50,932 nucleotides of DNA from a virus. Of the stretch, positions 10,353 to 27,036 are shown one piece after another. The notes under the pieces are model-generated. The model was not told the origin of the DNA. It was given only the letters and a program-made list of their open reading frames with translations, and did no database searches. Position 1 is the stretch's first letter; every line of letters begins with the position of its first letter. Position numbers and translations under genes: made by a program. Where the stretch lies: positions 1-50,932 of the IMG/VR virus record IMGVR_UViG_3300042391_000121, one strand, 5' to 3'.

Positions 10353-13226
10353 TTATTTGTTTACAATTAATGGAATTGCTTCAGGGCCCAAGCTTTTTAA
10401 TCTTTGTACTGCTATATTTAAATCCACCTCACCCTCTAGTTCTTGTACAGAAGACCTACCGTTTATATCTTTTGCATAAACAATAGGAAACCATAAACCA
10501 TTTTGAAATTTAAAGTTAGCTTTAATGTCTATTCCTTGAGGGGTTTTCATCATTCTTGGAAAATCAGATTTGTCAAAATACGAATCATTATTATAATATG
10601 TATTTACATCATTAGGATCTAATGTAGAAGTTCTTTGATTTGCATTTAATGAAACCTTTCTTCTAATAGCAGCAATAGAATTTGATTCATACAATGAAGC
10701 CATATTGATTCCTCTATTATTAGCTTCTTCGTCTGATATCACCATTCTTCCTGATACCTCCCCATTAGTATTATATGATACAAGTTGTGTAAGAATGTTA
10801 CCATTATTAGGATCTCTAAATGTTTTTGCTTGTACAACATCTGGATCTTTTTGACTAATTGCTGTAGCAAAGTTTTTAACTTCACTTTTGTCTGCATAGT
10901 TTTTACCGCTTTCAATATAGCTACCAGCCATTGTTTTTAAATCAAGATATGTTTTTCTATCTGTTTCAGCATCCCCTATAAGAATATCTAGTTTCATAGC
11001 AGGTTTAAAGTAAGTACTTTCTTTTAAAAGCTCTGCTTTTTTAGCAAGTGCTTTTGTAACCTTCTCATTATTAATTAAATTATATGCCTTATCTAATGAA
11101 CCTTTAAATGCTAAACTAGTAGCATCTGCAAAACCAGGTGCCATCTTTGAAACACCAAGACCATATCCTTGATCATTCCTTAAATATGTATCTCCACCAC
11201 CAAGAAAGCTGTAAATATTATTAGTAAGATCTTTAAACTCTCTAACTATAGCAGTTGGTACATCTAAAGTTTTAGTTGTACCAGTTCCATATCTATCAAG
11301 AACTGTAGGTAAAATAAAGGCTTTACCTCTACTAGCTAATCTTGCTTCTGCAGCTTTAGCAGCATTGACTTCTGCATCTGAAGTATAATCTCCAACTACT
11401 GATTTATGACCAGCTAAATAAATAGCAGCATCATTAAAATCTTGTTTATCTAATGTATATTTTTTACCATTATAATTAACATCAACATTTTTAATATCAG
11501 CATCTTTAAGTAAATTACCTAAATCTACTCCACCAGCTTCATTTGAAGCTTTTATGTTTATTGTTTTCTCTTCATCTAAAAGACCACTATATTCTTTCTG
11601 TGCTTCTTTATATGAATTAAGACGGTTTATTAAAGTTGGAGAAGCAGTAGATAAATTTTTAGTAACTCTTTGAACAGCACTTCCTCCTATTTGAGTTATA
11701 TAATCTTCAAGAGGTAACTTAGCTTTTTTTGCATTAGCCGCTAAGATTCTTTGAATAGATTCTAATCTAGTAAAACCAGATCCTCCCTTTTTCTTCATAT
11801 CAGCTGTAAGAACAGCATCGTTTGCAGGGTCTCCACTAAACATACTATCCCAAACAAATTCATAAGAAGAGTTTAAAAACTTTGCTCCCACTTCAGCTTT
11901 TTGTTTTTCAGCTTCTGCTATTATATCAACATCTGATGGATTCTCATCACGTGTAGGTCCATTACCATCACCACCCATATTAAAGCCTGGAAACATATTA
12001 TTAGACAAACCTTTCCCTTTACCCATCATTGCAATCTGTTTTGCATTCTCACGGTTAAGTTTATTTTCATTTGCTGTAAATGCTCTAGTCTCTCTAGCAT
12101 TGTTTATATCCCATTGTAACCTCTGAGCAAATCTAGATTGCTCATTTGCTTCTTGCATCATTTTAAAATTAGAATTCCATAAAGGATTCTCATGAGCTTC
12201 TACACTACTTCTAACAGATCCATATATAGATTTGTAATTACTTACAACTCCTTGCTTATATAAATATCCTTTTAGGGCATCTGGACTATCAATAGCTTGT
12301 TGAGCTAATTTATCATAACTAGATGTAATTGTGTCAACATTACCTTTAACAGCATCTATTTCTGTTTGTACATTTTTACCTAGTTTTTTATCTAGATTTA
12401 AGTCAGCTAGTTTATCTAAATATCCTCCAAGTGTAGCATCTCTTTGATCATAAAGCATATCAACTAATGCTTTAGGAGTATAACTTTTATAATTATATCT
12501 ACCACTAATTTGTAACTGTTGTCCCACTCTAGGGTCAGCCATGATTTGGTTAATAGCTCCTTCTACTTCTTGAGGAAGTCTACCTTCCTTTTTCATTCTC
12601 ATCATCACTGGAGAAGCAATGTAATTACCTTGCTTGTCTCTTGCATACGAACCATCTGCATTAGTTTGATATAATTCATCAAATGTATATCCACCTGGCT
12701 TGATAGCATCAAATGTTTCTTTTGCGTATTTATCTACATCAAAGAATGGAGTGTAGCTAGAATTAAACTTATATCCAGCTTTACCAGAAGTTAACCACTT
12801 TTGTACTTCAGAATTAAATAAGTCTACGTTAGCAGGATTAGATTTACCTTCATCAATAGCCTTTTGCATTTTCTCATTTTGCTCTCTATACCAATTAGCA
12901 GAAGAAACAGCATTTCTAACAACTGGATCTTTAACTATTTTAGTAGCCATTCCACCAACAGAATTAACTAATTGCTGGTTAGAGAAATCCCCAGCAGCAA
13001 CATACTTTAAGTTGTTTCCTAATTGATTAAGAGAAGACTGTAAATACTTTCTATCAGCATCTGTAGCTACAGGTAGTCCACCTATCTCATCCACATAGGC
13101 TTGGATTTTTTGCACACCTGCGTCATATTGAGCCTGCTTTTGCATGCCAACTTGAACCATTGCCTCAACTGGAAGCTGGGCAATGTAGGGATTAAAGGAT
13201 GATATCTGGTCTGTAAATGAAGCCAT
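10353..13226 (-). CDS. Large helical virion cargo/ejection protein candidate (957 aa)
   Basis: This gene sits directly upstream of the giant polymerase gene. Its first 80 residues (FNPYIAQLPVEAMVQVG, then QYDAGVQKIQAYVDEIGGLP) resemble, from memory, the start of a protein conserved next to the RNA polymerase in crAss-like phages. That neighbour is believed to be packaged in the virion as cargo. The sequence is charged and mostly helical by composition, with no signal peptide, no clear membrane segment and no catalytic motif that I recognise. The start codon lies about 10 nt downstream of a promoter-like sequence at 13241-13272, so this gene and the polymerase may have their own transcript. 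A role as an internal protein that protects, packages or escorts the polymerase during ejection is inferred from position only. Confidence -1.
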   Translation of the reverse strand: MASFTDQISSFNPYIAQLPVEAMVQVGMQKQAQYDAGVQKIQAYVDEIGGLPVATDADRKYLQSSLNQLGNNLKYVAAGDFSNQQLVNSVGGMATKIVKDPVVRNAVSSANWYREQNEKMQKAIDEGKSNPANVDLFNSEVQKWLTSGKAGYKFNSSYTPFFDVDKYAKETFDAIKPGGYTFDELYQTNADGSYARDKQGNYIASPVMMRMKKEGRLPQEVEGAINQIMADPRVGQQLQISGRYNYKSYTPKALVDMLYDQRDATLGGYLDKLADLNLDKKLGKNVQTEIDAVKGNVDTITSSYDKLAQQAIDSPDALKGYLYKQGVVSNYKSIYGSVRSSVEAHENPLWNSNFKMMQEANEQSRFAQRLQWDINNARETRAFTANENKLNRENAKQIAMMGKGKGLSNNMFPGFNMGGDGNGPTRDENPSDVDIIAEAEKQKAEVGAKFLNSSYEFVWDSMFSGDPANDAVLTADMKKKGGSGFTRLESIQRILAANAKKAKLPLEDYITQIGGSAVQRVTKNLSTASPTLINRLNSYKEAQKEYSGLLDEEKTINIKASNEAGGVDLGNLLKDADIKNVDVNYNGKKYTLDKQDFNDAAIYLAGHKSVVGDYTSDAEVNAAKAAEARLASRGKAFILPTVLDRYGTGTTKTLDVPTAIVREFKDLTNNIYSFLGGGDTYLRNDQGYGLGVSKMAPGFADATSLAFKGSLDKAYNLINNEKVTKALAKKAELLKESTYFKPAMKLDILIGDAETDRKTYLDLKTMAGSYIESGKNYADKSEVKNFATAISQKDPDVVQAKTFRDPNNGNILTQLVSYNTNGEVSGRMVISDEEANNRGINMASLYESNSIAAIRRKVSLNANQRTSTLDPNDVNTYYNNDSYFDKSDFPRMMKTPQGIDIKANFKFQNGLWFPIVYAKDINGRSSVQELEGEVDLNIAVQRLKSLGPEAIPLIVNK

Positions 13227-13312: not shown

Positions 13313-16300
13313 TTATAGATTTTTGAGTGCTTTTACTATAGCACCATTTCTAGCAGTTGTCTTGGTTGTCTTAGGTTTCTTGGCAGCTTTAGCTTGTTCT
13401 ACAAATTTAGTATAGTCATCCCAAGTTGGTAACTTAATACCTGTATCTGGAACACTTTGGGTACCTTCTGTTTCTGAATTGTATACAACTGGCATATTTA
13501 TGTTAGCAAGACCATTCAAATTTCTAGCTCTCATATCTTTACCAAATCTGTAGTTATATAAGTTCTCATAAGTATTCAATTGTTTGGTAGCAAGTTCATT
13601 CTGAAGCATCTTAGCACTAATAGAATTAAGAGCCGTAATTGCTTGAGCTTTAGTATTGCTCTTAGCTTTAGATTGTCTTTCATATTGATTATCAAGAATT
13701 GCTAAGTTCTTAAGCTGAGCATCATTCATAATATCTCTGTTCTTGCTATATATAGCAGCTTTATTAGCTTGATTCACTCTAAATTGATTAGCTAATACAC
13801 TAGAGTTAGCACCGTATTTTTGTGCAGCCAAGGCAGCCATTGCTTCAGGATTTCCATTAGCCTGTCTTAACATTGCGTTGAAATCAGACTGATTAGCATT
13901 TAACTGATCCTGGAAAGAAACATCATACGGAGTGTCTAACATTGGGTTGTACAATTGAGCTTGTACAGGTTCAAGTTGGTTATTAGCCAGAGCGTATTGT
14001 TCTCCTAATGTTTGTCTATAATCAAAAGGGTTCTTAGTAAACGGTCTTAAATAGTTTAACCCCTCATTAACCACAACTTCCCAAGGAAACTTTTGTTTAG
14101 GAGGAGTTGGGGATGTGCCTGGTGGCACTACAGGGTCAATAGGAGTTTCACTAGGAGGAATTACTGTTCTTGGAGGAAGAGGGATTTTAGTTTTAGTAGT
14201 CTTAGCAGCATTATCTAATGCAGCCATGTATTGTTTAGTTCTCTTACCAAAGATAGAATCTTCATTCCCACGTAAGTCATCAAGTTTATATTTATTCTTT
14301 TTTGCATAAGCAGTAAGAGGTTCTTTGCCTATAACAGCTTTTGCATATTCAGGGAATAACTTATGATATTCTTGTTGAAACTTTTTAACATCTGTTCCTT
14401 TCTTAGTCTTTTCAGCTTTTGCATATAACTCTTTAATCATTGCGTACTTGTCCTCATCTACTGTAGGAAGACCTGGAGCAGCTGGTGCATTTGTAGGATC
14501 TTGTGTAGGAGCAAATGGATCTTCTCCTTCAAAATCCATATGGAATCCAGCTTGTGCCTTTTCTATGGCAGCACCATATTTTGCTTGGTTTGAGTTCACG
14601 TTATCTTTTTTAAGTTTTAAGTTTCCTTTTAATACGTCTTCAGAAAACTTTTTAGGGTCTTCATATCCATATTCGTTTGCTGTGTCAAGAATAGCGTTCT
14701 GTCCAGCAGCTAATTTCTTTTTCTTATCAGCAATAATCTTCTTACCTAGATCAGCTCCAAAATTATTAGCTAATGCAGAGTTCATTCCCAATTGACCACC
14801 AATAGATCCATCATCAGAAATCAACGCTAAATCTGAAGCCTTCTGTTGTATTTTGTTTAATTTTATTTCTTCCTTATTTAAACCAAATACAGCTTTCTTA
14901 AACTTAACTCCTTTCAACTTCTCATCTCCAGCAGACTTAGCTACATAGTCAGGAATATGGATGTCTCCATAAACAACTACATCATCAGACTCACCACCAT
15001 TATTAAACTTCTGAATTGGTTCATTCTCTACCTCTACAACATTATCACCATATTGAACACCAATTCCTGTTTGTCCTTTACCATTAGATTTCTCATGAGA
15101 GTTACCTTCAGCTTCTACACTATCTCCTAAGTATTCATTGTGAGAAACTGTATTAAGCTTACCGCCCCATAATGTTTTCAAATCACCACCGTAAGCCATT
15201 TGTCCACCATACTCCATATTAGGTGCTGTATATCCTGGTAATCCACCAGGCATAGTATCATTCATTTGTTGCATGTATCCTTGAGCCTTCTTCTCATTTA
15301 ACATATCATATCTATCCATGATTTGTTTTTTACCAATCAAGTTAAGGAATGGTCTACGCTCTTCTGTTCTACGAAGTTCATTTACAGCAGGTTGCCCTTC
15401 TGTAGCCATTCTTGTAAACTCTGAAAACTTATTACCATTATCTCTACCATATGAATAAACTTCCTGAGATGGTTGGTTATCATAATAGTCTTTAGTGTAT
15501 TGAGCACTTGTAAAGTCTTGATTATAATTACTTCTACCATTTCTATTTGTATCAGTAGTATTCATTTGTGTATAAGCTTTAATATTGCTCAATCGTGGAT
15601 TTGCCATAGCACCACCAGTAGGTGCAACTTCTACACCTGGTTCATTTGTTCTCTTCATCCATTTACCATACTGAGCTCTATCTGTATACATAGCTGCAGC
15701 ACTAGGAGGAGTGTATTCTCTTAAGTGGCCACCAGCACGTAACATATCAGCATCATTAGGAGGTGCTAATAGATTTTTCATTCTATAGTCACCAAATGAA
15801 GCAATCACTTGTGGTTGCCAATCATTACTTACCCATCCACCATTTTCCATGTTACTAGAATACTGAGACTGAATAGATTTAGCACCTTGAGCCCAAGCAG
15901 ATCTTTCTACATTCTTTTCAGTTTGATCTTGAAAACCAGCAAGCTTATTAGCATCATCTGCACCACCAAGTAAGTTACCAGCAACCTTTCCTAAGAACCC
16001 ACCCACTTGTCCACCAAGAGGACCAAAGAATGCAGAACCAATTGCAGATCCTACACCTTTACCAATAGATGCTTGACCTGAGTCTTGGAAGTAATCTCCA
16101 AACTCTGCAGTAGGAATGCCGCCACCATAAGCATATTGTTTAGGATTGCTATCATCTAATGGTTCATATCCAAGATCCATATATAAATTGCTAGGAGCAT
16201 ATGTGTTTTGAATCTCTGCACCATATTGTGCATTTAATACATTACTGCCTGTACCATAACTAGGAGACATTTGATTAGGACCAAACTTTTGATCTTCTGG

Positions 16301-17203
16301 TCTCAAAAACTTATTTTTCTGTATACCCACTGGACTTGACTCAGCTGCTTGTGCTGTAAGTCCTGAGATTTGAGCTGATTGATCAGCTTGTTTAATTGCT
16401 GCCTTTTGTTGTTTAATTTGACCAATGCCATTTATAATATCTGGAGCAGCTTGTAATGCACTACCAGCAGCACCAGCCCAATCAAATCCTTCACCACTAG
16501 GAACACCCTCACTTAATCCTAAAGCATCTGTATCAGCCTTACTAACACTGCCAGAAGCATTATCAACCATACCAGTCTTTGTATTAAAAGTAGCTGTGCT
16601 CTTTTTTCCTTGTCCAAAAATACCTGTTGTAAAAGGTGAGTCTATAGGAGATGATGCTTTTTTTGTATTACCAAATAAACCTCTTGGACCAGACATCCAG
16701 TTATCCTGCTTCTTATCCATAAGATTCTTACCAGCAGTCTTTGCAAAACCTCCAACCTTGCTACCTATACCTTTAAGAAACTTACCAAATTGAGCTTCTT
16801 CAACACTAGTCATATCTCCTCCACCTTCACCAAACAAAGCTGCAATATTCTTAAGTCCACCTAATGCTTCTTGTGTACCATCAGATTTACCAGCAGCAAT
16901 AGTTTGAGCATTTGCTTCATCAGCCATCATCTTTTGCTGAGTCATATATTGATTCTTACTCATACCTAAATTGGTAGCTTGTGCTCCAACTAGTGCATCA
17001 TCAAAATTAAAGCCTGCTTGAGCTTGAGGAGGATTAGCAAAGTCTGTAAGCTGGGTCAATTGAGTGTCAACCATCTTGGCACCCATAGCAGCTTTCTTAA
17101 GCTGTTTACCATGCTTAGCCATAAATGCTTCTTCTGTAGGAAACTTCTTGTAGAATTCCTTTTCAGACTTTACTTTAGCGATCTTTAAGATTTGATCTTT
17201 CAT
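13313..17203 (-). CDS. Large virion cargo protein with glycine zippers and a peptidoglycan-binding-like segment (1,296 aa)
   Basis: No single family is recognised for the whole protein. A stretch at about residues 373-413 (IGKGVGSAIGSAFFGPLGG and onward) is a Gly/Ala hydrophobic zipper of the kind seen in phage ejection proteins that enter membranes; a shorter one lies near 138-160. Residues about 660-800 contain repeated YGG motifs and a region resembling other crAss-like cargo proteins. Residues about 935-1000 (VKKFQQEY, then IFGKRTKQYMAAL) resemble the PG_binding_1 fold, where a Q near the start and a G-x-x-T near the end are typical. A proline-rich linker (about 1000-1040) leads to a helical C-terminal region with many Asn, Gln and Ala. 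It stands between the ADP-ribosyltransferase-like gene and the polymerase pair. A role in carrying cargo across the cell envelope is inference. Confidence -1.
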   Translation of the reverse strand: MKDQILKIAKVKSEKEFYKKFPTEEAFMAKHGKQLKKAAMGAKMVDTQLTQLTDFANPPQAQAGFNFDDALVGAQATNLGMSKNQYMTQQKMMADEANAQTIAAGKSDGTQEALGGLKNIAALFGEGGGDMTSVEEAQFGKFLKGIGSKVGGFAKTAGKNLMDKKQDNWMSGPRGLFGNTKKASSPIDSPFTTGIFGQGKKSTATFNTKTGMVDNASGSVSKADTDALGLSEGVPSGEGFDWAGAAGSALQAAPDIINGIGQIKQQKAAIKQADQSAQISGLTAQAAESSPVGIQKNKFLRPEDQKFGPNQMSPSYGTGSNVLNAQYGAEIQNTYAPSNLYMDLGYEPLDDSNPKQYAYGGGIPTAEFGDYFQDSGQASIGKGVGSAIGSAFFGPLGGQVGGFLGKVAGNLLGGADDANKLAGFQDQTEKNVERSAWAQGAKSIQSQYSSNMENGGWVSNDWQPQVIASFGDYRMKNLLAPPNDADMLRAGGHLREYTPPSAAAMYTDRAQYGKWMKRTNEPGVEVAPTGGAMANPRLSNIKAYTQMNTTDTNRNGRSNYNQDFTSAQYTKDYYDNQPSQEVYSYGRDNGNKFSEFTRMATEGQPAVNELRRTEERRPFLNLIGKKQIMDRYDMLNEKKAQGYMQQMNDTMPGGLPGYTAPNMEYGGQMAYGGDLKTLWGGKLNTVSHNEYLGDSVEAEGNSHEKSNGKGQTGIGVQYGDNVVEVENEPIQKFNNGGESDDVVVYGDIHIPDYVAKSAGDEKLKGVKFKKAVFGLNKEEIKLNKIQQKASDLALISDDGSIGGQLGMNSALANNFGADLGKKIIADKKKKLAAGQNAILDTANEYGYEDPKKFSEDVLKGNLKLKKDNVNSNQAKYGAAIEKAQAGFHMDFEGEDPFAPTQDPTNAPAAPGLPTVDEDKYAMIKELYAKAEKTKKGTDVKKFQQEYHKLFPEYAKAVIGKEPLTAYAKKNKYKLDDLRGNEDSIFGKRTKQYMAALDNAAKTTKTKIPLPPRTVIPPSETPIDPVVPPGTSPTPPKQKFPWEVVVNEGLNYLRPFTKNPFDYRQTLGEQYALANNQLEPVQAQLYNPMLDTPYDVSFQDQLNANQSDFNAMLRQANGNPEAMAALAAQKYGANSSVLANQFRVNQANKAAIYSKNRDIMNDAQLKNLAILDNQYERQSKAKSNTKAQAITALNSISAKMLQNELATKQLNTYENLYNYRFGKDMRARNLNGLANINMPVVYNSETEGTQSVPDTGIKLPTWDDYTKFVEQAKAAKKPKTTKTTARNGAIVKALKNL

Positions 17204-17223
17204 ATTATAATCTATTGTATGAT

Positions 17224-19797
17224 TTATTTATATTTACTTAGCCAGCCACCATTTTTCTTTTGTGAAGCTCTTTCTATTCCAGCAACTCCTACTGCAGGAA
17301 GAAGAGCTTTATATATATTTGGATTGTTCATATCAAACATTCCATTGTTACCTACAGCTGATTTAAGTTGTTTATTTGTTGGAAACACTATTTCATATGC
17401 GTCATTCCAAGGTCTAACGTTTGTTACATTAGGGTGTTTATTAGCAATAGCAGCATCATATCCAGTCAATCTTTCTTCAATAGGTATTTCTCCTTTCCAA
17501 TTTGCTGTTCTATTAAAATTAAACAAATCTCTTTTACCTCCTTCATTAACTAATTGTTCAGAACTAATTGGATTATTAGCTTGACCATATAATTCATAAA
17601 CAGTAGGAGTATGTTCTTTTCCTCCTATAAATGAACGTGAAGAATAAGCATAACTATCAGCAACTGTTTTTGATGGTGTTGTATATATTCCAACTCCTGA
17701 ATATCCAGCATCTCCTCTTTGAAATAATGCAGGGTCAAAAACATTAAACCTTTCTGGAGCTCCATGGTATAACATAATTGGAGAACCATCTGGATTTACT
17801 AACTTAGAGTTACCAAATGCCTTTTTAAAGTTTTGACTTTGCTGTTGTACAAACTGTTCAGGAGTTCCTTTAAATTCACTACCATCAGGATTTTTCATCC
17901 ATACATCATTGGCTTTAGTAGAGTTTTCTATATTAATATACTCCTCCATTAACTTTTTATTCTTAGGAATTTCAGGATTCCATTTAGCCCAGTCTATTTC
18001 AGATACTTTTGTTGATTTATTTTTAGAAACTTCTTTATATCCTTTTAACCAATCTTTCTTTAATATCTTACCTTCAGTTGTAGGTATATCTCTTTGAGCT
18101 ATTTGACTCCATTCTTTTTTACCATATCTTTTTCCCCAGTCAGAAGCTGCTCTTGGTACCTCAGCAATAAATCCTTGTCCATACTGATCTGCTATATCAA
18201 ATCTAGGACTATAGTAAGCTTTACTAAATTGTCTAGTAGTATTAAAGTTACCTATACTAGTGGGAGTTACATTTTGTTTAGCTCTAAACAGACCACTCTG
18301 TACTGCATCTTCCATTCCTTCTTTTCCAAGCCCTCTATACATCATTCCTTCTGTAGGTTTAAATGCATAAGGATTTAGTTTATATGCATTAGAAAGTAAT
18401 CCAGACTCCATTGATTGAGCAACTTTTCCTGGAACTTTCAAAGCACTTCCTAAAGGATCTATTCCTAATGCTCCTGTACCAGCAGCTAATGCCAAAGATG
18501 TTGCAATAGCTTTTGGGTCTCTTGCTGCAATTGATTCTCCTAAAGCATCTGCTAAGACACCTACATATGTAGCTGGATTTAAGTAATCATCAAACATTTC
18601 TCCCACTCCACCAACACTCTCAGGAAACAATCTAGCTTTTTCTGCTATATTAAAACTACCAGGAACATTTACATCTCCTTTTGTTTTTCTTTTAGCTGCT
18701 CTTTCAGCTATAATTTTTTCATCACGTTCTTTGGTTCTTTTTTGAGTTTCTTTATTTATTCTAGCATTCTCTTCTTGTTCTTTCTTTGTAAGAGGTCTTA
18801 TAGGAGCAGCAACTCTTGTAGCATCTTGACGCATTGGTTCAGGATATTTATCTAACCAACCACCACCTTGCATCATTGGATATTCTGTAACCTTATCACC
18901 ATCAAACTTGTAATCTTCTCCAGGTTGCATCATCTTTGTATCACCTGTATCAGATACACCAAGAACAGGATAGTCAACTCCCTGCATTGTTATTTCATTA
19001 GAACCTATCTCTGTAATCTCACCTGGGTGAGCCCATTGTCCTCTGTCATCTTTAATAACAGAACCATCTTTACTTATATTGTTAGGTTTCCAATCAAGTC
19101 CATTCTGATAAAACTCCATCTCACCACCATTCTGTAATGTATGTCCTTTTTTCTTTAATTTGTTAAAGTGGTTTATATACTTTAACATATCTAAATAACT
19201 AACACTTGATGGTGTATTTTTCATAGCACCTGCAAGACCTATCTTAGACCAATTAGTATTTAATAATTTAGTAAGTTCTTCTTTAGGTAATTCCTGTACT
19301 TTATTCTGAACCTCTTTAATAATTGGGTCCATAGGAGGTATGTTTCTATTAGAAGCAACAGAAAATCCTGCTATAGTTTTATTAAGAAAATCTTTAGTTG
19401 AATATGGAAGTTTATCATAACTATCTTGTGTTCCTATAGCATCAAATACTTTATTTTCTATTGGAGCATATAATTCATTATATCTTTCTTTTTGAATATC
19501 TTTACCATTCTGAGCACTTGCTTTAGTCTTCTTAGTATACTTACCATTAGCAGGAGCTGAGCCAGCTACACGTGCGTACGTGAACCCTACAGCACCTGGT
19601 AAGCTACCACCCATAGCAAACTGACCTCCCCATGCAGGAGAATAGTTTCTACCTGTTGTATCATAACCATCTCCTACGTAACCAGGACCTACAGATACTT
19701 CTACATCATTAGGATTAAACTTTAGGTCATAGTTATCTTTAGTCTTTTTCTTTAAGACCATTCCTCCTTGCTCGTATTTATTTAACCACTTAGCCAT
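17224..19797 (-). CDS. Virion cargo protein with two ADP-ribosyltransferase-like domains (857 aa)
   Basis: The N-terminal half (to about residue 310) is a structural-type region with ITMQGVDYPVLGVSDTGD and MMQPGEDYKF, a pattern I recall from crAss-like and other Bacteroidota phage virion proteins. Residues 484-590 hold a first ART-like domain: YRGLG (R488), then FSKAYYSPRFDIADQYG and FIAEVP (E546), fitting an R-S-E layout. Residues 674-830 hold a second: MLYHGAP (H678), GYSGVGIYTTP (Y705) and VYELYG (E735), fitting the H-Y-E layout of the ART-PolyVal type. The motif (G)WLxKY occurs at residues 4-8, 313-318 and 850-856. Residues 71-78 (GFTYARVA) are identical to a peptide in the capsid protein N-terminus. 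Its ATG overlaps the previous stop by one base. Likely an injected effector that modifies a host target, by analogy to T4 Alt; activity is not shown. Confidence -1.
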   Translation of the reverse strand: MAKWLNKYEQGGMVLKKKTKDNYDLKFNPNDVEVSVGPGYVGDGYDTTGRNYSPAWGGQFAMGGSLPGAVGFTYARVAGSAPANGKYTKKTKASAQNGKDIQKERYNELYAPIENKVFDAIGTQDSYDKLPYSTKDFLNKTIAGFSVASNRNIPPMDPIIKEVQNKVQELPKEELTKLLNTNWSKIGLAGAMKNTPSSVSYLDMLKYINHFNKLKKKGHTLQNGGEMEFYQNGLDWKPNNISKDGSVIKDDRGQWAHPGEITEIGSNEITMQGVDYPVLGVSDTGDTKMMQPGEDYKFDGDKVTEYPMMQGGGWLDKYPEPMRQDATRVAAPIRPLTKKEQEENARINKETQKRTKERDEKIIAERAAKRKTKGDVNVPGSFNIAEKARLFPESVGGVGEMFDDYLNPATYVGVLADALGESIAARDPKAIATSLALAAGTGALGIDPLGSALKVPGKVAQSMESGLLSNAYKLNPYAFKPTEGMMYRGLGKEGMEDAVQSGLFRAKQNVTPTSIGNFNTTRQFSKAYYSPRFDIADQYGQGFIAEVPRAASDWGKRYGKKEWSQIAQRDIPTTEGKILKKDWLKGYKEVSKNKSTKVSEIDWAKWNPEIPKNKKLMEEYINIENSTKANDVWMKNPDGSEFKGTPEQFVQQQSQNFKKAFGNSKLVNPDGSPIMLYHGAPERFNVFDPALFQRGDAGYSGVGIYTTPSKTVADSYAYSSRSFIGGKEHTPTVYELYGQANNPISSEQLVNEGGKRDLFNFNRTANWKGEIPIEERLTGYDAAIANKHPNVTNVRPWNDAYEIVFPTNKQLKSAVGNNGMFDMNNPNIYKALLPAVGVAGIERASQKKNGGWLSKYK

Positions 19798-20663
19798 TAC
19801 TTGTAAGAAATTTGCGATGGTGTAATAATGAATTGAGATACTAAATTGGCTTCTGATGTATTATCAAGAATATGCCTCACCTTAAGTTCTTTAGCTCTTA
19901 AAGGTTCTTTCTTATATGATCTTTTTCCGTAATCCATATTAGCTTGATTTACAATCTTGTCTATTGATAATGACTCACAGCTCACCGTAAACAAAGGTAC
20001 GGCTTTATTTTTAACTAAACTCCAAAATGTATTATACTGATAAAAATTATCAGATTTAGTATACATGATAGTTTTACTCTCAGCATTGTATATAGGATAT
20101 TGTAAATAAGCTTTTAGGTTATTAATTGGTTTTGGTACCAATTCTAATACACCTGTAGACTGTTGACCGTTATATAACACTGCCTTATTGAACCAATGGT
20201 TGTCAGTTTCTATCTGAGCATTATCATTAAACACACCATCTGCTATAGGAAGATATTTATAAGCCTTTGTATAGTCTTTTACATTCTGAAGAATCTCATC
20301 ATATGATTGATATGAGAATGGGTATTCAATAATGTAAGGTTCTATAATATCATAATACTTATTATAAATAGTTGTGTTAGCAAGATGTCTCCATAAAGAA
20401 GCTGTATTAATTGGAGTGTATACAACAGCAGCTATTTGTTCAACAGTCATTGTTGTAATGTCTACATCAATAATAGTCTTACACCTTCCTGTAGATTCTA
20501 TAATAATTGAAGTAACAGCATCAGCAACACTAACTGTGTAACCATCAATAAGGTTATCTTTGGACACAGCTATACCCAAAACAGTACCTAAGTTATCATA
20601 GATATTGAACGGTCCTGTTCTGTTACCAGCTCCTGTTAATTTTATTATTACTATCTTAGCCAT
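19797..20663 (-). CDS. Tail-tip protein with N-terminal GPFN anchor module (288 aa)
   Basis: Residues 1-70 carry the module found in three other genes of this window: a beta-rich stretch, TGPFNIYD, then GYTVSVAD and STGRCKTIIDVDI. Unlike the other three it has no poly-Thr linker. The remaining 215 residues run straight on with many Tyr and Asn and a segment DYGKRSYKKEPLRAKELK that looks like a conserved structural region. Lying just downstream of the muzzle-like gene and its 238-aa neighbour, it is probably a minor tail component. The function of the C-terminal part is not recognised. Confidence -1.
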   Translation of the reverse strand: MAKIVIIKLTGAGNRTGPFNIYDNLGTVLGIAVSKDNLIDGYTVSVADAVTSIIIESTGRCKTIIDVDITTMTVEQIAAVVYTPINTASLWRHLANTTIYNKYYDIIEPYIIEYPFSYQSYDEILQNVKDYTKAYKYLPIADGVFNDNAQIETDNHWFNKAVLYNGQQSTGVLELVPKPINNLKAYLQYPIYNAESKTIMYTKSDNFYQYNTFWSLVKNKAVPLFTVSCESLSIDKIVNQANMDYGKRSYKKEPLRAKELKVRHILDNTSEANLVSQFIITPSQISYK

Positions 20664-20677
20664 TTATTGTAAGTATT

Positions 20678-21394
20678 TTAACAAGTTACATAATTTGTAA
20701 TCTCTCCACTTGTATTAATTTCTACAGCATATGTGTCTAATGGTCCTGTTAATTTACGCCAACCTACTGAACCAACAAATGGATTTGCTAAAGGATTAGT
20801 AGTGGTGTATAAAATTAACCCTACCATAGGTACTGTATTTCCAGATTCAGCCCAAACAATACTTGTTGTTGTTGAACTTGTACAAGCATCACCTGAAGTT
20901 CCAGTAGCTGAATTATCAATTTGATACTCCTCAGGAGGAGGAGAACATTGACCAACTTGACTTATAATAGCTAAACTGCCTTCTAAAACATTAGGTGTTG
21001 CATTATCACATAAACATGCATTTCCTGATTCACCATCAGTTAATACTCTACTTTGATTATTACCATCACAATCTGTCCACTGTACTATTGCACCTTCTGA
21101 ACCTGCTGTAAAGTCCCAATTAAAACAACCAGCTCCTGCACCAATTGATTCACAATAAGTTGTTATGCTAGTTATTTCCATATCTACATAATTTGTACAA
21201 CCAACACTATTAGATTTTACTCTAACTATAGTAGCAGCATCTGGCACCACGGTTGAAGTGTATCCAGCTAACAAAGCTGATTTTGCTATTCCTGTAGCAA
21301 ATGCAGTAACGTATGCATCTGCATCTGAAAAAAGATTAAATGGACCTGTATCAGTTCCTGCTGCTGCGATTGTTATAATTACTGTTTGTGACAT
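20678..21394 (-). CDS. Cys-rich adhesin-type tail protein with GPFN anchor module (238 aa)
   Basis: Residues 1-75 are the shared anchor module (AGTDTGPFNLFSDAD, then LLAGYTSTVVPD and VGCTNYVDMEI). Residues 80-130 form the recurring Cys module, with QWTDCDGNNQ at 105-114 and a closing Cys pair at 127/129. A short Ser/Thr stretch (STTTS) follows, then a C-terminal domain of about 60 residues. There is no signal peptide. The architecture matches the 160-aa gene in the fibre cassette 9 kb upstream, so both probably decorate the same virion structure. Receptor or glycan binding is inferred from architecture and position. Confidence -1.
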   Translation of the reverse strand: MSQTVIITIAAAGTDTGPFNLFSDADAYVTAFATGIAKSALLAGYTSTVVPDAATIVRVKSNSVGCTNYVDMEITSITTYCESIGAGAGCFNWDFTAGSEGAIVQWTDCDGNNQSRVLTDGESGNACLCDNATPNVLEGSLAIISQVGQCSPPPEEYQIDNSATGTSGDACTSSTTTSIVWAESGNTVPMVGLILYTTTNPLANPFVGSVGWRKLTGPLDTYAVEINTSGEITNYVTC

Positions 21395-21409
21395 ATATCG
21401 TTAATTTAT

Positions 21410-24400
21410 TTATTGAAGAATAGCTGTTCCAGCAGTTAATGTACAATCATATGTTACTACAACAGCACTTCCTGCAGTTAATGTACAATCATAAACAGGA
21501 GGAGTAGGAGTTGTTGTACTAGTAGTTGTTACTGGTATAACATATTCTGCTGTACCACCTAAGTTACAATTTAATATAACTGTTGTTGTAGTTGTAGTAG
21601 TTGGACTAGGAATCTCCATAACAGCAATAGCTTCTAAATCACATCCCTCATTCAATCCTGAATAGAAGAAGTTGTTTTCAGCTATGTAATAGTTAGGAAT
21701 ATAACTATGGAAACTAACCCAGCTTTGTATATTTACACTGTATGATAGAGTCCACGACTTGTTACAGAAGTATTGTCTGTCTGTTAAACTAACTACCTTT
21801 CTTAAAGATAAATCACCATAAGCTTTATCAATATAGTACTCACCTGTTAATTCATCATATTGGATAACATCTACATACTCTTGTTGAGGAATGTAGTCAA
21901 GTTTAGATATAATTATTCTATCATACTTACTATCATATACACCATGTAAACCACAAGCATTGAAGTGATTATCTGTATCAGCATTAGGAAAATAACGTAA
22001 TATCTCAAATGCTAAGTGGTCTGTAAAGAACTTATTAAGCCCTGAACCAAATGCAGACAAGTCTTGTATTTGACCACCCATTCCATTAATAAGAAACACT
22101 TGTCCTCTTTTAGCATCTATAGTTACTTGTCCATTAGGAATCTTCAATAAGAACTTATTTTGACTTCCTACATATCCAAGGTCTGTCTCAGCAAAATCAA
22201 TTGGAGGAGCAGATCTAAATAGTGAAGGATTGCCTAAATAAGCAGCTTGAGGATTACTTGTATTTATTGTTAACAATGTATTATATAACAATGACTTGTT
22301 CTCAAATCTAGCTAATACAGCTTTGTTCTGAATACCGTCCAATGAAGTTAAATTGCCAAAGTTTTGAGGAAAGTCAAAGAATGCTACAGGAGCATAATTT
22401 AACCAGCTATTTACTCTTACGCTTGGATTATTAGCTTGTGCCTCAGAATAGATTGCTCTGAATGGAAAGTTTGTATAACACTGGTTGTTATCAAAATCTA
22501 CAGGTAAGTGAGAAAAGAAATTTTCTTTATTCTGTTTTGAATATGTTACATTATATGTATATGTATTGTCAAATTGAATTGGAACAACAGATTGTTGTAA
22601 CCAGTTATCAGGAATACCAGAACTCACGTGGGGGTAGAAGTCTCCTTCAAAATTATTAAATGCTTGACGTAAGTCTACATTTATAGAACTTTCTACATAA
22701 TAATAAGGAATACCATAAGCAAATAGATACATCTTGCCCTCATATGAATAAGCTGTACTACTTAAAGCTGTACTACCTGGAGCAGCTGTAGTAGATGTGG
22801 TAGTGGTAGTATTACTTATAATAGTATAATCATTAGGACAATCAAGATAGTTTGCCTTAACAGATATAATATTTTTCATTAATGTTGTACCAGCCATGTA
22901 ATTGCTTAGTACAGATCTAGCAGAGTACCAGTATTGTGGATAGGCAACATTACCTAATTCATCGTAGAATATATCACTATCATCAGGAGCTCCCACTCTA
23001 TTATCAATAAAGAAAGGAAGTTTAGTTTTATAAGCAAATCTGCCAATAAAAGTATCTCCACCAAACACAGTTTGAATTCCTGATACATCACTTAATTGTT
23101 TTTGGAAACCTGTATCAATTGTATTATAAGAATATAATTGACCCCACTGATTAATGTTTATATTCTTAATAGATCCATAATAAGAAACCACTTTAATAGG
23201 TTCTTGTGTTTCTGGAGATGCACAAGCATCTCTTTGAGAAATTGTAAATCTTGAATCATCAGTAATTAAACTGTTCCCAGCAACTACTAAAGATGGAGTT
23301 TGTTCAGCAAATGGTAATGGGGTTACACCGTTTGGTGTTTTTAAATAAACAGAAGATTCTCTTTGAAAGTTATTTATATTATAAGTATCACCAACAGACT
23401 GAAAACCAGGAATAAGATATTGATATAAATCAAGTTCTCTTTGTTTAACACCTATATTACCAAATGCATCAGGAGCAGCGTTTTGAACATCTGCATTATA
23501 ATCATATTGAGCAGTGGAATTAAATGAGTATGTAAAGTTTCTTCTGCTAATACCATTAATATAAATTGTTAAATATGCTTGGTAAGCAGTAAACATCGCT
23601 GTAGCATCTAATGTACCTGTAATTCTAGCAATGTTATAACTTGAATTCAAAGCATCTACTTGTGCTTGTTTAGTAATTAACTTATATAATGCATGATTTT
23701 TAACTTGTACAAAATGGGCTCTACCTCCTCCAAATACAGCACTTTCTAACTTAAGCACATTACCTAAAAAAGGTTGTCCAAAAGAAGTCTCTGGTGAATT
23801 AAACACCATTCTATATTTAGAACTATTATCAAATCCACTTAAGTTATTTGGAAAACAGTTTGTATTTTTATTATTAGTTGTTTCTAATATCGTATATTTA
23901 TCAGATCCACTTACACGACTAGGAACAGTTGTAGAACTTACAGTAGTAGGATTATTTGGTACAACAGTTATATTGACACTTACTAATGAAACTGGATCAG
24001 TGTATATAAATGCTGTAGACGATCCATAAGCAGTTAATGTATAAGAAATAGCTGTAACGTTAGTAAATGTAGCAACTCCTGTAATTACTAAAGGAAGTGT
24101 AACAGAACATATTTCTGTCATACCAAGTGGCATATTAATTGCTAGTACTTCTCCTGAATAACAATCAGTATATTGTAATGTGCCAGCCGTAGTTACTACA
24201 ACTTTAAATGTTTGACACTGAGAGTTATATGCATTATTCTGTTCAAGTAAGAATGGATCAGTTTTAATGTCATTATAAGGATAGTTAGGATAGTAATAGT
24301 AAGTAGCAGTAGGACTAGTTGGGTCCTCTCTTGTATACTTACCTACATTTCTTAACATACCTTTTGCTACAATAGATTTGTTTGTAGCTCTATCACCTCT

Positions 24401-26062
24401 TACAATTTTATATGCAACTATATCAGCTTTTTGATCAGCTGTTAAATTAGAATTATCAATTAACGATATTACCTGTTGTGTATTTATTTTAACACCAATA
24501 GGGTATAAAGCATTTGCTTTCTGCAATTCTGGAAGATTATAGTTTGGAGCCTGTGACTCAAACATTGGACTAACTAGAATATCAGGAAACTTATGATGAC
24601 GAATCTTTTGTCCAGCTAAAGCTCCATATAAAAGAGTGTTACATGGATATTCTTCATTAGATTCCCAATATGCAAAATCACCAAATTTATATGGTGTAGC
24701 ATTTCCAATATTAGGTCCTAAAGCATCTCCAACTACAGTTGCAGTGTTGTATATTTTCCAATAAGGAGCAGTTGTTCCTGTACCAATAAAATCAGCATTT
24801 GTAGATTTATCAACAACCACCAAATCATCAGCTGTAGCAACTCTACCAGGGATATGAAAACCACTTGTTTGTTTGCCGTTTCTTAATAAGAAAACAATTT
24901 CAAATGCATATATTTCATCACGCAGATACCCACGTAAGTTAGTAGCATTTAATTCATCAGCGTAAGTTTCTCCAGCAGGAATCTTATAAGTTTGCCATTG
25001 AAGATCAATCTTACTAGCAATACTTTGATAGTTAATTTTATCAATAGATGTAAGTTGATCCCATACAAGAATATCTTGTACAGCTGTTACATCTTGTGCA
25101 ATATCATAATATGGAAACTTTTCAAATATTTCAGCAACTGTTAAATTAATTGCTTCTTCATATTGCCCTGTATAAGTAATTTGATTTGTAGCACCATCAA
25201 TAAAATATGTACCTACTAATTGAACAGAGGTAATATCATTTATTGTTTTAATTACAGCCAAATTGTAATATTCAAAATATCCTGTTAAATCAATGTTGCT
25301 TATATCCACTACAATAGATCTTCCAACAGGATAGTTAAAATCAAGTGTTGTAAGCTTTGGATTTGCAATAGGAGTTGGATTAGTTACTGAATAGTAAGAT
25401 GTGTATGCATCTCCTTGTGCACTACAATATTGAATAGCAAATTGATATGTACCAGCTCTTAAATCTCCCCCATTAATAATACTATTAACACTTAAACCTG
25501 GAATATTAAAATTAGGTTGTATCTTTAATTTATTACAATCAAGTATTGGTGTTACAATAGGATCACAAATAACATCATCTGCAAAAGTTGTAATATATGG
25601 AATATTATCAAGATCTAAATATCTTCTAGGGTTTAATCCATCTGTCCAATAAATCTCTGTACTACAGTTTGAAATCTTGTGTACAGCTTTTTGTATTGGA
25701 TAGTTAATATTAAAGTTTAAACAAAGTCCTTCTACGTACATGTGATAGATACAATCGTTGTTATCCATGTATCCAATCTGAGAAGCCCCAGTTTCAGGAT
25801 TAGTTAGAAAGAATATATGTTGATTCCTCTCTTGAATAAAATGTGTTCCAATAAGAAGAAAGTTCTCAGGAAAGTTTAGACATAACTCATTACCTGGTTC
25901 ATTTTGGTAGTTTACAGCAGTGGCACTAAAATTCTCAACAGATGCATTTAAGGCATAAGTAAGCTTACCCTTCTCAACCTGGTTTACAGATGAGTCCATA
26001 TTTAGTCCAGTTCTACCTAAACTAAATTCCTGTCTAATATTTCCTTGTTCTTGATCTGCCAT
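21410..26062 (-). CDS. Muzzle / tail-stabilisation-type protein (1,550 aa)
   Basis: This is the largest complete gene in the window. It lies directly downstream of the neck/ring protein genes, where crAss-like phages encode the stabilisation protein (P22 gp10-like; the muzzle in phi-crAss001). The N-terminus (FSLGRTGLNMDSSVNQVEKG) is typical of such proteins, which begin by describing a long Tyr/Asn-rich beta structure. It contains a copy of the Cys module near residues 613-655 (LQYTDCYSGE), a Thr-rich linker near 1087, and a C-terminal tail from about 1487 with two more Thr tracts and repeats of CxLxxG(S/T)A. The C-terminal repeats suggest an exposed end that exchanges parts with the adhesin genes. 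It is expected at the tail end that closes the DNA exit channel. Confidence -1.
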   Translation of the reverse strand: MADQEQGNIRQEFSLGRTGLNMDSSVNQVEKGKLTYALNASVENFSATAVNYQNEPGNELCLNFPENFLLIGTHFIQERNQHIFFLTNPETGASQIGYMDNNDCIYHMYVEGLCLNFNINYPIQKAVHKISNCSTEIYWTDGLNPRRYLDLDNIPYITTFADDVICDPIVTPILDCNKLKIQPNFNIPGLSVNSIINGGDLRAGTYQFAIQYCSAQGDAYTSYYSVTNPTPIANPKLTTLDFNYPVGRSIVVDISNIDLTGYFEYYNLAVIKTINDITSVQLVGTYFIDGATNQITYTGQYEEAINLTVAEIFEKFPYYDIAQDVTAVQDILVWDQLTSIDKINYQSIASKIDLQWQTYKIPAGETYADELNATNLRGYLRDEIYAFEIVFLLRNGKQTSGFHIPGRVATADDLVVVDKSTNADFIGTGTTAPYWKIYNTATVVGDALGPNIGNATPYKFGDFAYWESNEEYPCNTLLYGALAGQKIRHHKFPDILVSPMFESQAPNYNLPELQKANALYPIGVKINTQQVISLIDNSNLTADQKADIVAYKIVRGDRATNKSIVAKGMLRNVGKYTREDPTSPTATYYYYPNYPYNDIKTDPFLLEQNNAYNSQCQTFKVVVTTAGTLQYTDCYSGEVLAINMPLGMTEICSVTLPLVITGVATFTNVTAISYTLTAYGSSTAFIYTDPVSLVSVNITVVPNNPTTVSSTTVPSRVSGSDKYTILETTNNKNTNCFPNNLSGFDNSSKYRMVFNSPETSFGQPFLGNVLKLESAVFGGGRAHFVQVKNHALYKLITKQAQVDALNSSYNIARITGTLDATAMFTAYQAYLTIYINGISRRNFTYSFNSTAQYDYNADVQNAAPDAFGNIGVKQRELDLYQYLIPGFQSVGDTYNINNFQRESSVYLKTPNGVTPLPFAEQTPSLVVAGNSLITDDSRFTISQRDACASPETQEPIKVVSYYGSIKNININQWGQLYSYNTIDTGFQKQLSDVSGIQTVFGGDTFIGRFAYKTKLPFFIDNRVGAPDDSDIFYDELGNVAYPQYWYSARSVLSNYMAGTTLMKNIISVKANYLDCPNDYTIISNTTTTTSTTAAPGSTALSSTAYSYEGKMYLFAYGIPYYYVESSINVDLRQAFNNFEGDFYPHVSSGIPDNWLQQSVVPIQFDNTYTYNVTYSKQNKENFFSHLPVDFDNNQCYTNFPFRAIYSEAQANNPSVRVNSWLNYAPVAFFDFPQNFGNLTSLDGIQNKAVLARFENKSLLYNTLLTINTSNPQAAYLGNPSLFRSAPPIDFAETDLGYVGSQNKFLLKIPNGQVTIDAKRGQVFLINGMGGQIQDLSAFGSGLNKFFTDHLAFEILRYFPNADTDNHFNACGLHGVYDSKYDRIIISKLDYIPQQEYVDVIQYDELTGEYYIDKAYGDLSLRKVVSLTDRQYFCNKSWTLSYSVNIQSWVSFHSYIPNYYIAENNFFYSGLNEGCDLEAIAVMEIPSPTTTTTTTVILNCNLGGTAEYVIPVTTTSTTTPTPPVYDCTLTAGSAVVVTYDCTLTAGTAILQ

Positions 26063-26067
26063 AATTA

Positions 26068-27036
26068 TTAATTATTTCTTCTCCTGCCGTATCTGTTAGT
26101 TCTATTAGGTAGTTCATATTGAGCAAACCTTTGCAAATCATTTTTAATTCTTCTTTGCTTCTCCCAAGGAGTTTGTTTCTTAATCTCAATATCAGCCATG
26201 ATAAATGCTTCATCATGTAACTGTTTGTAATAAGCTAGCTTTTGTTGTATTTGTTGGAAGGTCTCATCATTAATTTGATTTGAAAGAGTTTCAAACACTT
26301 TATATTTAATGAATGCTTCTACAAACTCTCTAATACGATAGTTATCAGGAATCAATTGATTACCTATATTATCATACTCTGTAGCATAAAATAATAAATG
26401 TACTACACCATTTCTGAAGTTAGTAACAAATTTGTTATCTCTAATGTCAAATGAATCATAGCCAGCAGAACCAGGAGTAAACTCATGCACTGTTGGAGGG
26501 GGAGCATAAAACTCCCAAGCATTACTGTATTCAACCTCACAGTTGTTTCTTGCAGAAATGTTACCTGGTTTTAATAAATATTCTTGTCTATAAGATCTAG
26601 CTATTGCATTGTTTGTTTTGTATACAGCTTGTATAAGCTCAGGCATACATGTAGGACAACCTGTTGTACATTGAGGATTGGTACAGGGTACTGTTCCACT
26701 AATGATAGGTGCTATCTGAATAGTTGTTTGAGATGCAGCTTGTGAATAGAATGAGTTAGCTGATTGATAAGGATACCCTGGAATCTCAGTACACATCCAA
26801 GCTTCTCTAGCAGCATAAAAGTTATCAGGAAGCCTAGCTTGGAAGTCTTCAATATAAAGAACTTGCTCAGCAATAGCATAAGTTGTCCTACCTAACTTGT
26901 TTAAACACTTGTTTAAATAAGTAGGGAAAAGCAAATCATCCACAGCTCCTGTGTCAAAATAGCTTTTTAATTCTTCTTTAACAGTTGCATAAACTGGTTC
27001 AGGAGATACAAATCTGTACTTATAATAGTATGACAT
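26068..27036 (-). CDS. Ring / tail-tubular-type neck protein (322 aa)
   Basis: The protein sits between a small basic protein and the muzzle-like gene, the place of the tail tubular (ring) protein in crAss-like phages. The first 85 residues are helical with aromatic and acidic patches (LFPTYLNKCLNKLGRTTYAI, then LPDNFYAAREAW), similar to P22 gp4-like or gp10-associated hub proteins. A CTNPQCTTGCPTC cluster (C118, C123, C127, C130) could bind zinc or form disulfides. Residues 240-322 are strongly helical and basic. Spacing to both neighbours is under 6 nt, so they are probably co-translated. Confidence -1.
   Translation of the reverse strand: MSYYYKYRFVSPEPVYATVKEELKSYFDTGAVDDLLFPTYLNKCLNKLGRTTYAIAEQVLYIEDFQARLPDNFYAAREAWMCTEIPGYPYQSANSFYSQAASQTTIQIAPIISGTVPCTNPQCTTGCPTCMPELIQAVYKTNNAIARSYRQEYLLKPGNISARNNCEVEYSNAWEFYAPPPTVHEFTPGSAGYDSFDIRDNKFVTNFRNGVVHLLFYATEYDNIGNQLIPDNYRIREFVEAFIKYKVFETLSNQINDETFQQIQQKLAYYKQLHDEAFIMADIEIKKQTPWEKQRRIKNDLQRFAQYELPNRTNRYGRRRNN

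What the first reader, a model, noticed from the sequence alone, without database searches (positions are those of the whole stretch)
17224..19797. Two different ADP-ribosyltransferase-like domains in one putative virion cargo protein
The C-terminal half has an R-S-E-type unit (residues 484-590) and an H-Y-E-type unit of the ART-PolyVal kind (674-830). Genes beside it encode the packaged polymerase and cargo, so this looks like an injected dual effector acting at the start of infection, comparable in concept to T4 Alt but in a crAss-like phage.
Basis: partly seen in the sequence, partly recalled or inferred. Interest (0 to 1): 0.8.

Follow-up and report, generated by a model that had tools for sequence, protein, structure and literature searches.

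The report
Modular crAss-phage cargo protein with ADP-ribosyltransferase
A crAss-like bacterial virus carries a mix-and-match protein, probably packed in its particle and injected into the host, that bears one clear and one doubtful NAD-using host-modifying domain, and its relatives swap those enzyme parts inside a conserved frame.

Summary
The ORF is real: 857 aa, minus strand, 17224-19797, in a crAss-like phage contig. The second unit is a confirmed ART-PolyVal domain (Pfam E 7e-14; ART folds in Foldseek; H678 and Y705 conserved, E802 mostly). The first unit (466-594) is a real, conserved phage module with a confident AlphaFold model, but no sequence or profile match to any ART. Its Arg is invariant (34/34); the proposed Ser (14/34) and Glu (5/34) are not. 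"R-S-E ART" is therefore unproven and may be a degenerate ART-like domain. Virion packaging has good indirect support: the protein's single-copy "anchor" domain is fused to a cargo-1-like protein in a relative contig and occurs in Cellulophaga phage phi4:1 gp040, annotated as a virion protein from MS/MS, as is gp041 at the equivalent gene position. In phage cr85_1 an ART-PolyVal is fused to a homologue of gp47, a packaged crAss001 protein. Beyond the finding: about 80 non-redundant relatives are mosaic polyvalent proteins. In their C-terminal cassette, near-constant borders (about 65% identity) enclose exchangeable cores (H-type ART, R-type ART-like, zincin; identity near shuffle level). A new crAss-phage variant of known polyvalent effectors, not a new kind.

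The parts
17224..19797 (-). 857-aa polyvalent protein P0001 (the finding)
   Evidence: ORF without internal stops
19492..19797 (-). residues 1-102: N-terminal block 'MAKWLNKYEQGG ... AWGGQFAMGGSLPGAVGFTYAR', shared by the close relatives
   Evidence: BLAST mapping in relatives
19135..19491 (-). residues 103-221: variable slot; replaced by a longer HExxH (zincin-like) module in L005, L006 and L008, whose last ~545 residues are 99-100% identical to P0001
18859..19089 (-). residues 237-313: 'anchor' domain, one copy in each of 54 family proteins; AlphaFold pLDDT above 90 over residues 251-310
18451..18507 (-). residues 431-449: most hydrophobic 19-residue stretch (mean Kyte-Doolittle 1.3)
18016..18402 (-). 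residues 466-594: ART1 module (proposed R-S-E ART); fold plausible, homology and catalysis unproven
18334..18336 (-). Arg488 codon, invariant in 34/34 ART1 homologues
17815..18003 (-). residues 599-661: conserved N-terminal border of the swap cassette (SEIDWAKWN...NFKKAF)
17335..17790 (-). residues 670-821: ART2, ART-PolyVal domain (H-Y-E type)
   Evidence: PF18760 E 7e-14; AlphaFold and Foldseek
17764..17766 (-). His678 codon, first residue of the H-Y-E triad
   Evidence: 17/17 conserved
17683..17685 (-). Tyr705 codon, second residue of the triad
   Evidence: 16/17 conserved
17392..17394 (-). Glu802 codon, third residue of the triad
   Evidence: 12/17 Glu
17308..17367 (-). residues 811-830: conserved C-terminal border of the cassette (LKSAVGNNGMFDMNNPNIYK)
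13313..17203 (-). 1296-aa cargo-protein-1 (gp45)-like protein, gene directly downstream
   Evidence: weak alignment to the gp45 portal-bound domain; a neighbour homologue that also matches the cargo-1 domain
10353..13226 (-). 957-aa protein; homologue of phi4:1 gp039, annotated as virion protein by MS/MS
   Evidence: E 1.5e-6; annotation
1..10350 (-). giant RNAP ORF (at least 3450 aa, runs off the window) with gp47-like and gp50-like parts
19797..20663 (-). 288-aa protein, matches the C-terminus of muzzle-type structural proteins
   Evidence: phrog_15100 E 7e-13; fused to the muzzle in Lbo-JY46 and FpV4
21410..26062 (-). crAss muzzle protein
   Evidence: PF25731 E 7e-34
26068..27036 (-). crAss tail ring protein 1
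   Evidence: PF24228 E 6.9e-10

Best explanation
P0001 is a polyvalent cargo (ejection) protein of an environmental crAss-like phage, probably of a Bacteroidota host. It is made with the tail and cargo proteins and loaded into the virion, where its single anchor domain probably serves as the virion-targeting part (inferred). It is ejected with the cargo proteins and RNA polymerase ahead of the DNA and refolds in the host. There the C-terminal H-Y-E ART-PolyVal domain transfers ADP-ribose from NAD+ to host macromolecules to favour infection (family-level inference; target unknown). The preceding module (ART1) is most likely an ART-like domain that has lost the canonical Ser and Glu in most relatives, so it either contributes binding or specificity or has a modified activity. 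Relatives exchange enzymatic cores (H-type ART, R-type ART-like, zincin, peptidoglycan hydrolases) within conserved frames, so the protein works as a swappable effector carrier. Shown here: the ORF, the ART2 family and fold, the one-copy anchor, cassette swapping, crAss synteny. Inferred: packaging, injection, enzymatic activity, host target.
For: ART-PolyVal Pfam hit; AlphaFold plus Foldseek to PARP catalytic domains and to ART-PolyVal proteins including crAss phages; conserved triad. Gene order muzzle - P0001 - cargo-1-like - 957 aa - RNAP matches crAss001 gp44-gp45-gp46-gp47, whose cargo proteins were detected by MS in virions (PMC10172136). Anchor domain: exactly one copy in 54 proteins; in L125 it is on the same ORF as a cargo-1-like protein; it is in phi4:1 gp040, annotated as a virion protein by MS/MS. 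phi4:1 gp041, at P0001's position, is also MS/MS-annotated and carries Phage_lysozyme2 and two HExxH motifs. cr85_1 gp47 homologue (46% identical to crAss001 gp47) carries an ART-PolyVal. 37 non-redundant cassettes: 20 H-type, 16 R-type, 1 zincin; H-versus-R borders 65-67%, cores 27% against 24% shuffled. 22 of 24 records tested carry the crAss muzzle.
Against: No virion proteomics was found for this phage or any member with the ART2 cassette. The cargo-1 identity of P0004 is weak by direct alignment (E 4e-4 single comparison, 0.007 in a small set; Pfam CARG1 over cut-off in only 5 of 33 relatives). The anchor is not homologous to the gp45 portal-binding domain by profile or fold, so how it would target the virion is unknown. 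ART1 fails every sequence test of ART homology.
Confidence: 0.68

Rival explanations
1. Both modules are catalytically active ARTs with different targets: an injected dual effector.
For: R488, S530 and E575 are all present in P0001; the two modules show a similar order of strands and helices in the AlphaFold model; 7 of 79 non-redundant family proteins combine ART1 with the cassette.
Against: Ser and Glu are not conserved in the ART1 family (14/34 and 5/34) and no sequence method links ART1 to ARTs.
Confidence: 0.2
2. ART1 is not an ART at all but a new phage-specific polyvalent-associated domain (binding or structural), so the protein has a single ART.
For: Nearly phage-restricted family: one hit in the genome collection, in a 104-kb contig of a MAG. 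Invariant R488 and W583 and near-invariant E546 do not follow the R-S-E pattern. No Pfam or profile match.
Against: Confident beta-alpha-beta order with Y-R at strand 1, as in ARTs. A 107-column Foldseek match to CC0527 (2o0q) may be to ART1, but the tool gives no query range.
Confidence: 0.35
3. The protein is a structural or assembly component of the tail or head, and its enzymatic domains are remnants or act on the phage's own proteins during assembly.
For: It lies in the structural gene block; the anchor also occurs alone as 82-aa proteins.
Against: The ART2 triad is kept in most H-type members, and relatives carry swapped enzymes such as SLT, VanY, amidase and glucosaminidase, which is not expected of inert structural parts.
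Confidence: 0.15
4. The protein is expressed late but not packaged; it modifies host proteins at the end of infection.
For: No direct proteomics for ART2-bearing members was found.
Against: Equivalent proteins of phi4:1 are annotated from virion MS/MS and cr85_1 fuses ART-PolyVal to a gp47 homologue.
Confidence: 0.12

Closest known systems
Polyvalent proteins of phages and conjugative elements (Iyer et al. 2017, PMC5512222)
   Same: Multidomain proteins predicted to be injected with DNA; ARTs are the commonest protein-modifying domain and may occur in several copies; fusions to metallopeptidases, lysozymes and virion RNAP; encoded with virion genes.
   Different: crAss phages are not mentioned in that paper's main text. 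Here there are a single-copy anchor domain, a fixed place next to cargo-1-like and RNAP genes, and a border-conserved swap cassette.
ART-PolyVal (PF18760)
   Same: ART2 matches over 138 of 140 profile positions with the H-Y-E residues.
   Different: The flanking 63-residue N-terminal border and the exchange of the core for R-type or zincin cores are not part of the Pfam model.
crAss001 cargo proteins gp45, gp46, gp47, gp49, gp50 (PMC10172136)
   Same: Same gene neighbourhood; the cr85_1 homologue of gp47 carries an ART-PolyVal.
   Different: P0001 has no counterpart in crAss001: it sits between muzzle and cargo 1; gp47 of crAss001 has no Pfam ART.
Cellulophaga phage phi4:1 gp040 and gp041
   Same: gp040 has the anchor domain; gp041 has the same gene position and is a multi-enzyme protein; both annotated as virion proteins from MS/MS.
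   Different: Neither shows an ART; gp040 combines the anchor with a cargo-1-like stretch.
T4 Alt
   Same: Concept of a packaged, injected ADP-ribosyltransferase (as described in PMC5512222).
   Different: Alt is an R-S-E ART outside the polyvalent class, in a T4-like phage; no Alt-type family match was found here.

Membership tests
ART-PolyVal (PF18760) | Score over the curated cut-off | tested here: met
   53.2 bits against 31.2, E 7e-14
ART-PolyVal (PF18760) | H-Y-[E/D] active-site residues | tested here: met
   H678, Y705, E802 present; 17/17, 16/17, 12/17 in the H-type set
ART-PolyVal (PF18760) | ART fold | tested here: met
   AlphaFold pLDDT about 88 over ART2; Foldseek to PARP domains (prob 0.9-1.0, global TM low because the model has two domains) and to ART-PolyVal viral proteins, E to about 1e-12
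ART-PolyVal (PF18760) | NAD-dependent transferase activity | not testable with these tools
   needs biochemistry
R-S-E ART (first unit) | Homology to a known ART family | tested here: not met
   no relevant Pfam, PDB or profile match
R-S-E ART (first unit) | Conserved Arg, Ser, Glu | tested here: not met
   R 34/34, S 14/34, E 5/34 across the family; all three present in P0001 itself
R-S-E ART (first unit) | ART fold | tested here: inconclusive
   confident model with ART-like element order, but Foldseek gives no query range to assign matches to this domain
Polyvalent protein | Several unrelated enzymatic domains in one polypeptide, across the family | tested here: met
   ART, SLT, VanY, amidase, glucosaminidase, SET, histidine phosphatase among relatives; HExxH in 20 of 79
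Polyvalent protein | Encoded with virion or packaging genes | tested here: met
   between muzzle and cargo-1-like/RNAP genes
Polyvalent protein | Packaged and injected | not testable with these tools
   indirect only: MS/MS annotation of phi4:1 gp040 and gp041
crAss cargo protein 1 (gp45) | CARG1 domain in P0001 | tested here: not met
   no Pfam hit; anchor against the C1 domain Prob below 1%; no gp45 among the 50 best fold matches
T4 Alt family | Sequence homology to Alt | tested here: not met
   no Alt-type family in Pfam or PHROG scans

The most novel reading that the evidence does not exclude
The one-copy anchor domain is a transplantable virion-loading tag, and the cassette borders are a slot in which crAss-like phages exchange effector enzymes by recombination, so that the whole family forms a naturally modular system for loading enzymes into virions and injecting them into Bacteroidota.
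Probability: 0.35. Interest if true: 0.8.

Novelty: new variant of a known kind. Interest (0 to 1): 0.55.

Why it matters
crAss-like phages are very abundant, yet what they inject besides RNA polymerase is poorly known. A conserved locus whose proteins combine one recurrent anchor with exchangeable enzymes gives a concrete, testable list of early-infection effectors and a candidate virion-targeting domain. It also shows domain shuffling in which borders stay constant while catalytic cores turn over, which makes the question of what polyvalent effectors are for directly testable in cultured relatives.

Tried and rejected
Homology of the anchor to the gp45 portal-bound domain was suggested by eye; hhalign (Prob 0.4-0.8%) and Foldseek (only weak, non-significant cupin-like matches) did not support it. 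Enrichment of the GG-x-L motif as a docking or cleavage signal: GG counts in P0001 are not above a composition shuffle (10 against 7.8, p 0.23), although contexts such as GGWLxKY recur. ART1-ART2 duplication: Smith-Waterman 31.0 against shuffles 28.6 +/- 4.9. DUF952 as an ART1 relative: no HMM match in the window. Cyanophage A4 pre-ejectosome 9k3a_B, top Foldseek PDB hit at E 9e-4: rmsd 19 A and TMq 0.21; the A-4L internal protein I could examine has an M23 peptidase and no Pfam ART, so I give it no weight. Searches for papers on cyanophage A4 found none.

Full report
OBSERVATION. The coordinates hold a single 857-aa ORF on the minus strand. The window is a complete IMG/VR record of 50,932 bases, a linear fragment. 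Upstream in transcription are tail ring protein 1 (PF24228) and the crAss muzzle (PF25731, E 7e-34). Downstream are a 1296-aa protein, a 957-aa protein and an ORF of at least 3450 aa that aligns to crAss001 gp47 (E 3e-34) and gp50 (E 9e-14).

SECOND UNIT. Residues 670-821 are an ART-PolyVal domain by Pfam (E 7e-14). AlphaFold of residues 466-857 with 46 sequences gave mean pLDDT 80.4. Foldseek returned many PARP catalytic domains in PDB (prob 0.9-1.0, though global TM-scores are low because the model holds two domains) and 57 viral models at E below 0.001. Many of the latter are named ART-PolyVal, including proteins of crAss phages cr130_1, cr271_1, cr116_1 and ctelJ1. ART-PolyVal in crAss-like phages is therefore already annotated and is not new in itself. 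H678 and Y705 are conserved in the H-type set and E802 mostly.

FIRST UNIT. Residues 466-594 form a conserved module found in dozens of phage contigs and in one contig of the genome collection, a 104-kb contig of a Dependentiae MAG. The model is confident and its order of strands and helices resembles ART2. All homology tests were negative: Pfam at E 10 for 38 members, PDB profile search, profile-profile against the H-type and R-type ART sets, and direct alignment to ART2. The two ART sets themselves also matched each other only weakly (Prob 14%), so the profile test is not decisive. R488 is invariant, but S530 and E575 are not. I rate an ART-like fold as somewhat more likely than not and an active R-S-E enzyme as unproven.

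FAMILY. Scans of viral contigs gave about 80 non-redundant family proteins. 22 of 24 records tested have the crAss muzzle. Residues 237-313 define an anchor domain present exactly once in each of 54 proteins, at the N-terminus, in the middle or at the C-terminus, and alone in 82-aa proteins. AlphaFold gives it pLDDT above 90 over residues 251-310, with a small beta fold; the best fold matches are non-significant and partly cupin-like. Other modules among relatives include SLT, VanY, amidase, LysM, glucosaminidase, lysozyme, SET and histidine phosphatase and HExxH motifs (20 of 79). In L005, L006 and L008 the last ~545 residues are 99-100% identical to P0001, while the slot at 103-221 holds a different, HExxH-bearing module, a near-isogenic natural swap.

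CASSETTE. The C-terminal region has a 63-residue border (SEIDWAKWN...NFKKAF) and a 20-residue border (LKSAVGNNGMFDMTNPNIYK). Among 37 non-redundant cassettes, 20 enclose an H-type ART, 16 a Y-R-G core that I read as R-type ART-like (no relevant Pfam match), and 1 a zincin. Between H and R types the borders are 65% and 67% identical while cores are 27%, against 24% for shuffled cores. L146 and L153 have similar cores with H in one and R in the other, which suggests these cores are one ART superfamily.

PACKAGING. In crAss001 the order is muzzle gp44, cargo 1 gp45, cargo 2 gp46, gp47; gp45, gp46, gp47, gp49 and gp50 were found in virions by mass spectrometry (PMC10172136). P0004, next to P0001, aligns weakly to the gp45 portal-bound domain at the right place (E 4e-4). 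A homologue of P0004's N-terminus in L024 has the cargo-1 domain. Five of 33 records have the Pfam cargo-1 domain over cut-off. The gene following the family protein is P0004-like or cargo-1-like in 28 loci. The anchor is on the same ORF as a P0004-like protein in L125 and occurs in phi4:1 gp040 (HMM E 1e-15). GenBank marks gp040 and gp041 as virion proteins from MS/MS. gp041, at P0001's position, carries Phage_lysozyme2 and two HExxH motifs. In cr85_1 a gp47 homologue 46% identical to crAss001 gp47 carries ART-PolyVal at its C-terminus. Together these make packaging likely; nothing here shows it directly for P0001.

MECHANISM AND CONTEXT. The best reading is a polyvalent cargo protein that is loaded into virions, ejected ahead of DNA, and uses NAD+ to modify host macromolecules. 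The class was described by Iyer et al. 2017 (PMC5512222), including several ARTs in one protein and fusions to virion RNAPs. Iyer et al. 2022 (PMC9503650) argue for frequent packaging of ARTs. The main texts of both papers do not contain 'crAss'. What appears new is the crAss locus, the single-copy anchor and the constant-border, variable-core cassette. I did not find these described in the open-access papers I searched, but subscription literature was not covered.

Noticed in passing
window 1-10350 (-): Giant ORF of at least 3450 aa joins gp47-like and gp50-like RNAP parts that are separate genes in crAss001; it runs off the contig and contains an HEVFH zincin motif and a DFDID motif.
   Followed up: partly
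window 19797-20663 (-): The 288-aa protein matches the C-terminal ~200 residues of muzzle proteins, which are fused to the muzzle in Lbo-JY46 and FpV4: an apparent split of the muzzle gene in this lineage.
   Followed up: partly
L039, L042, L043 (82-aa ORFs): The anchor domain occurs as a stand-alone 82-aa protein in several contigs.
   Followed up: no
L146 and L153 cassette cores: Similar cores carry Y-H-G in one and Y-R-G in the other, suggesting a switch of the first catalytic residue between H-type and R-type ARTs.
   Followed up: no
L015, L021, L030 (e.g. L021 protein residues 1104-1330): A third possible ART type with an ERELIGTG ExE-like motif sits in the slot before or beside ART1 or the cassette.
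   Followed up: partly
L013:4542-8882: A SET-domain protein-methyltransferase-like N-terminus (PF00856) on a phage polyvalent protein.
   Followed up: no
L179 (Leptolyngbya phage Lbo-JY46): A phage recorded on a cyanobacterium has the same muzzle, anchor, cargo and RNAP order; its other named muzzle relatives are mainly from Flavobacterium and Cellulophaga, so the host assignment deserves a check.
   Followed up: partly
L178 (RXKB01000023.1): The only ART1 homologue in the genome collection is on a 104-kb contig of a Dependentiae MAG, perhaps a misbinned phage.
   Followed up: no
L002 (cr130_1) 15776-22000: This ART-PolyVal protein reads open only with TAG as Gln (31 stops under table 11).
   Followed up: yes
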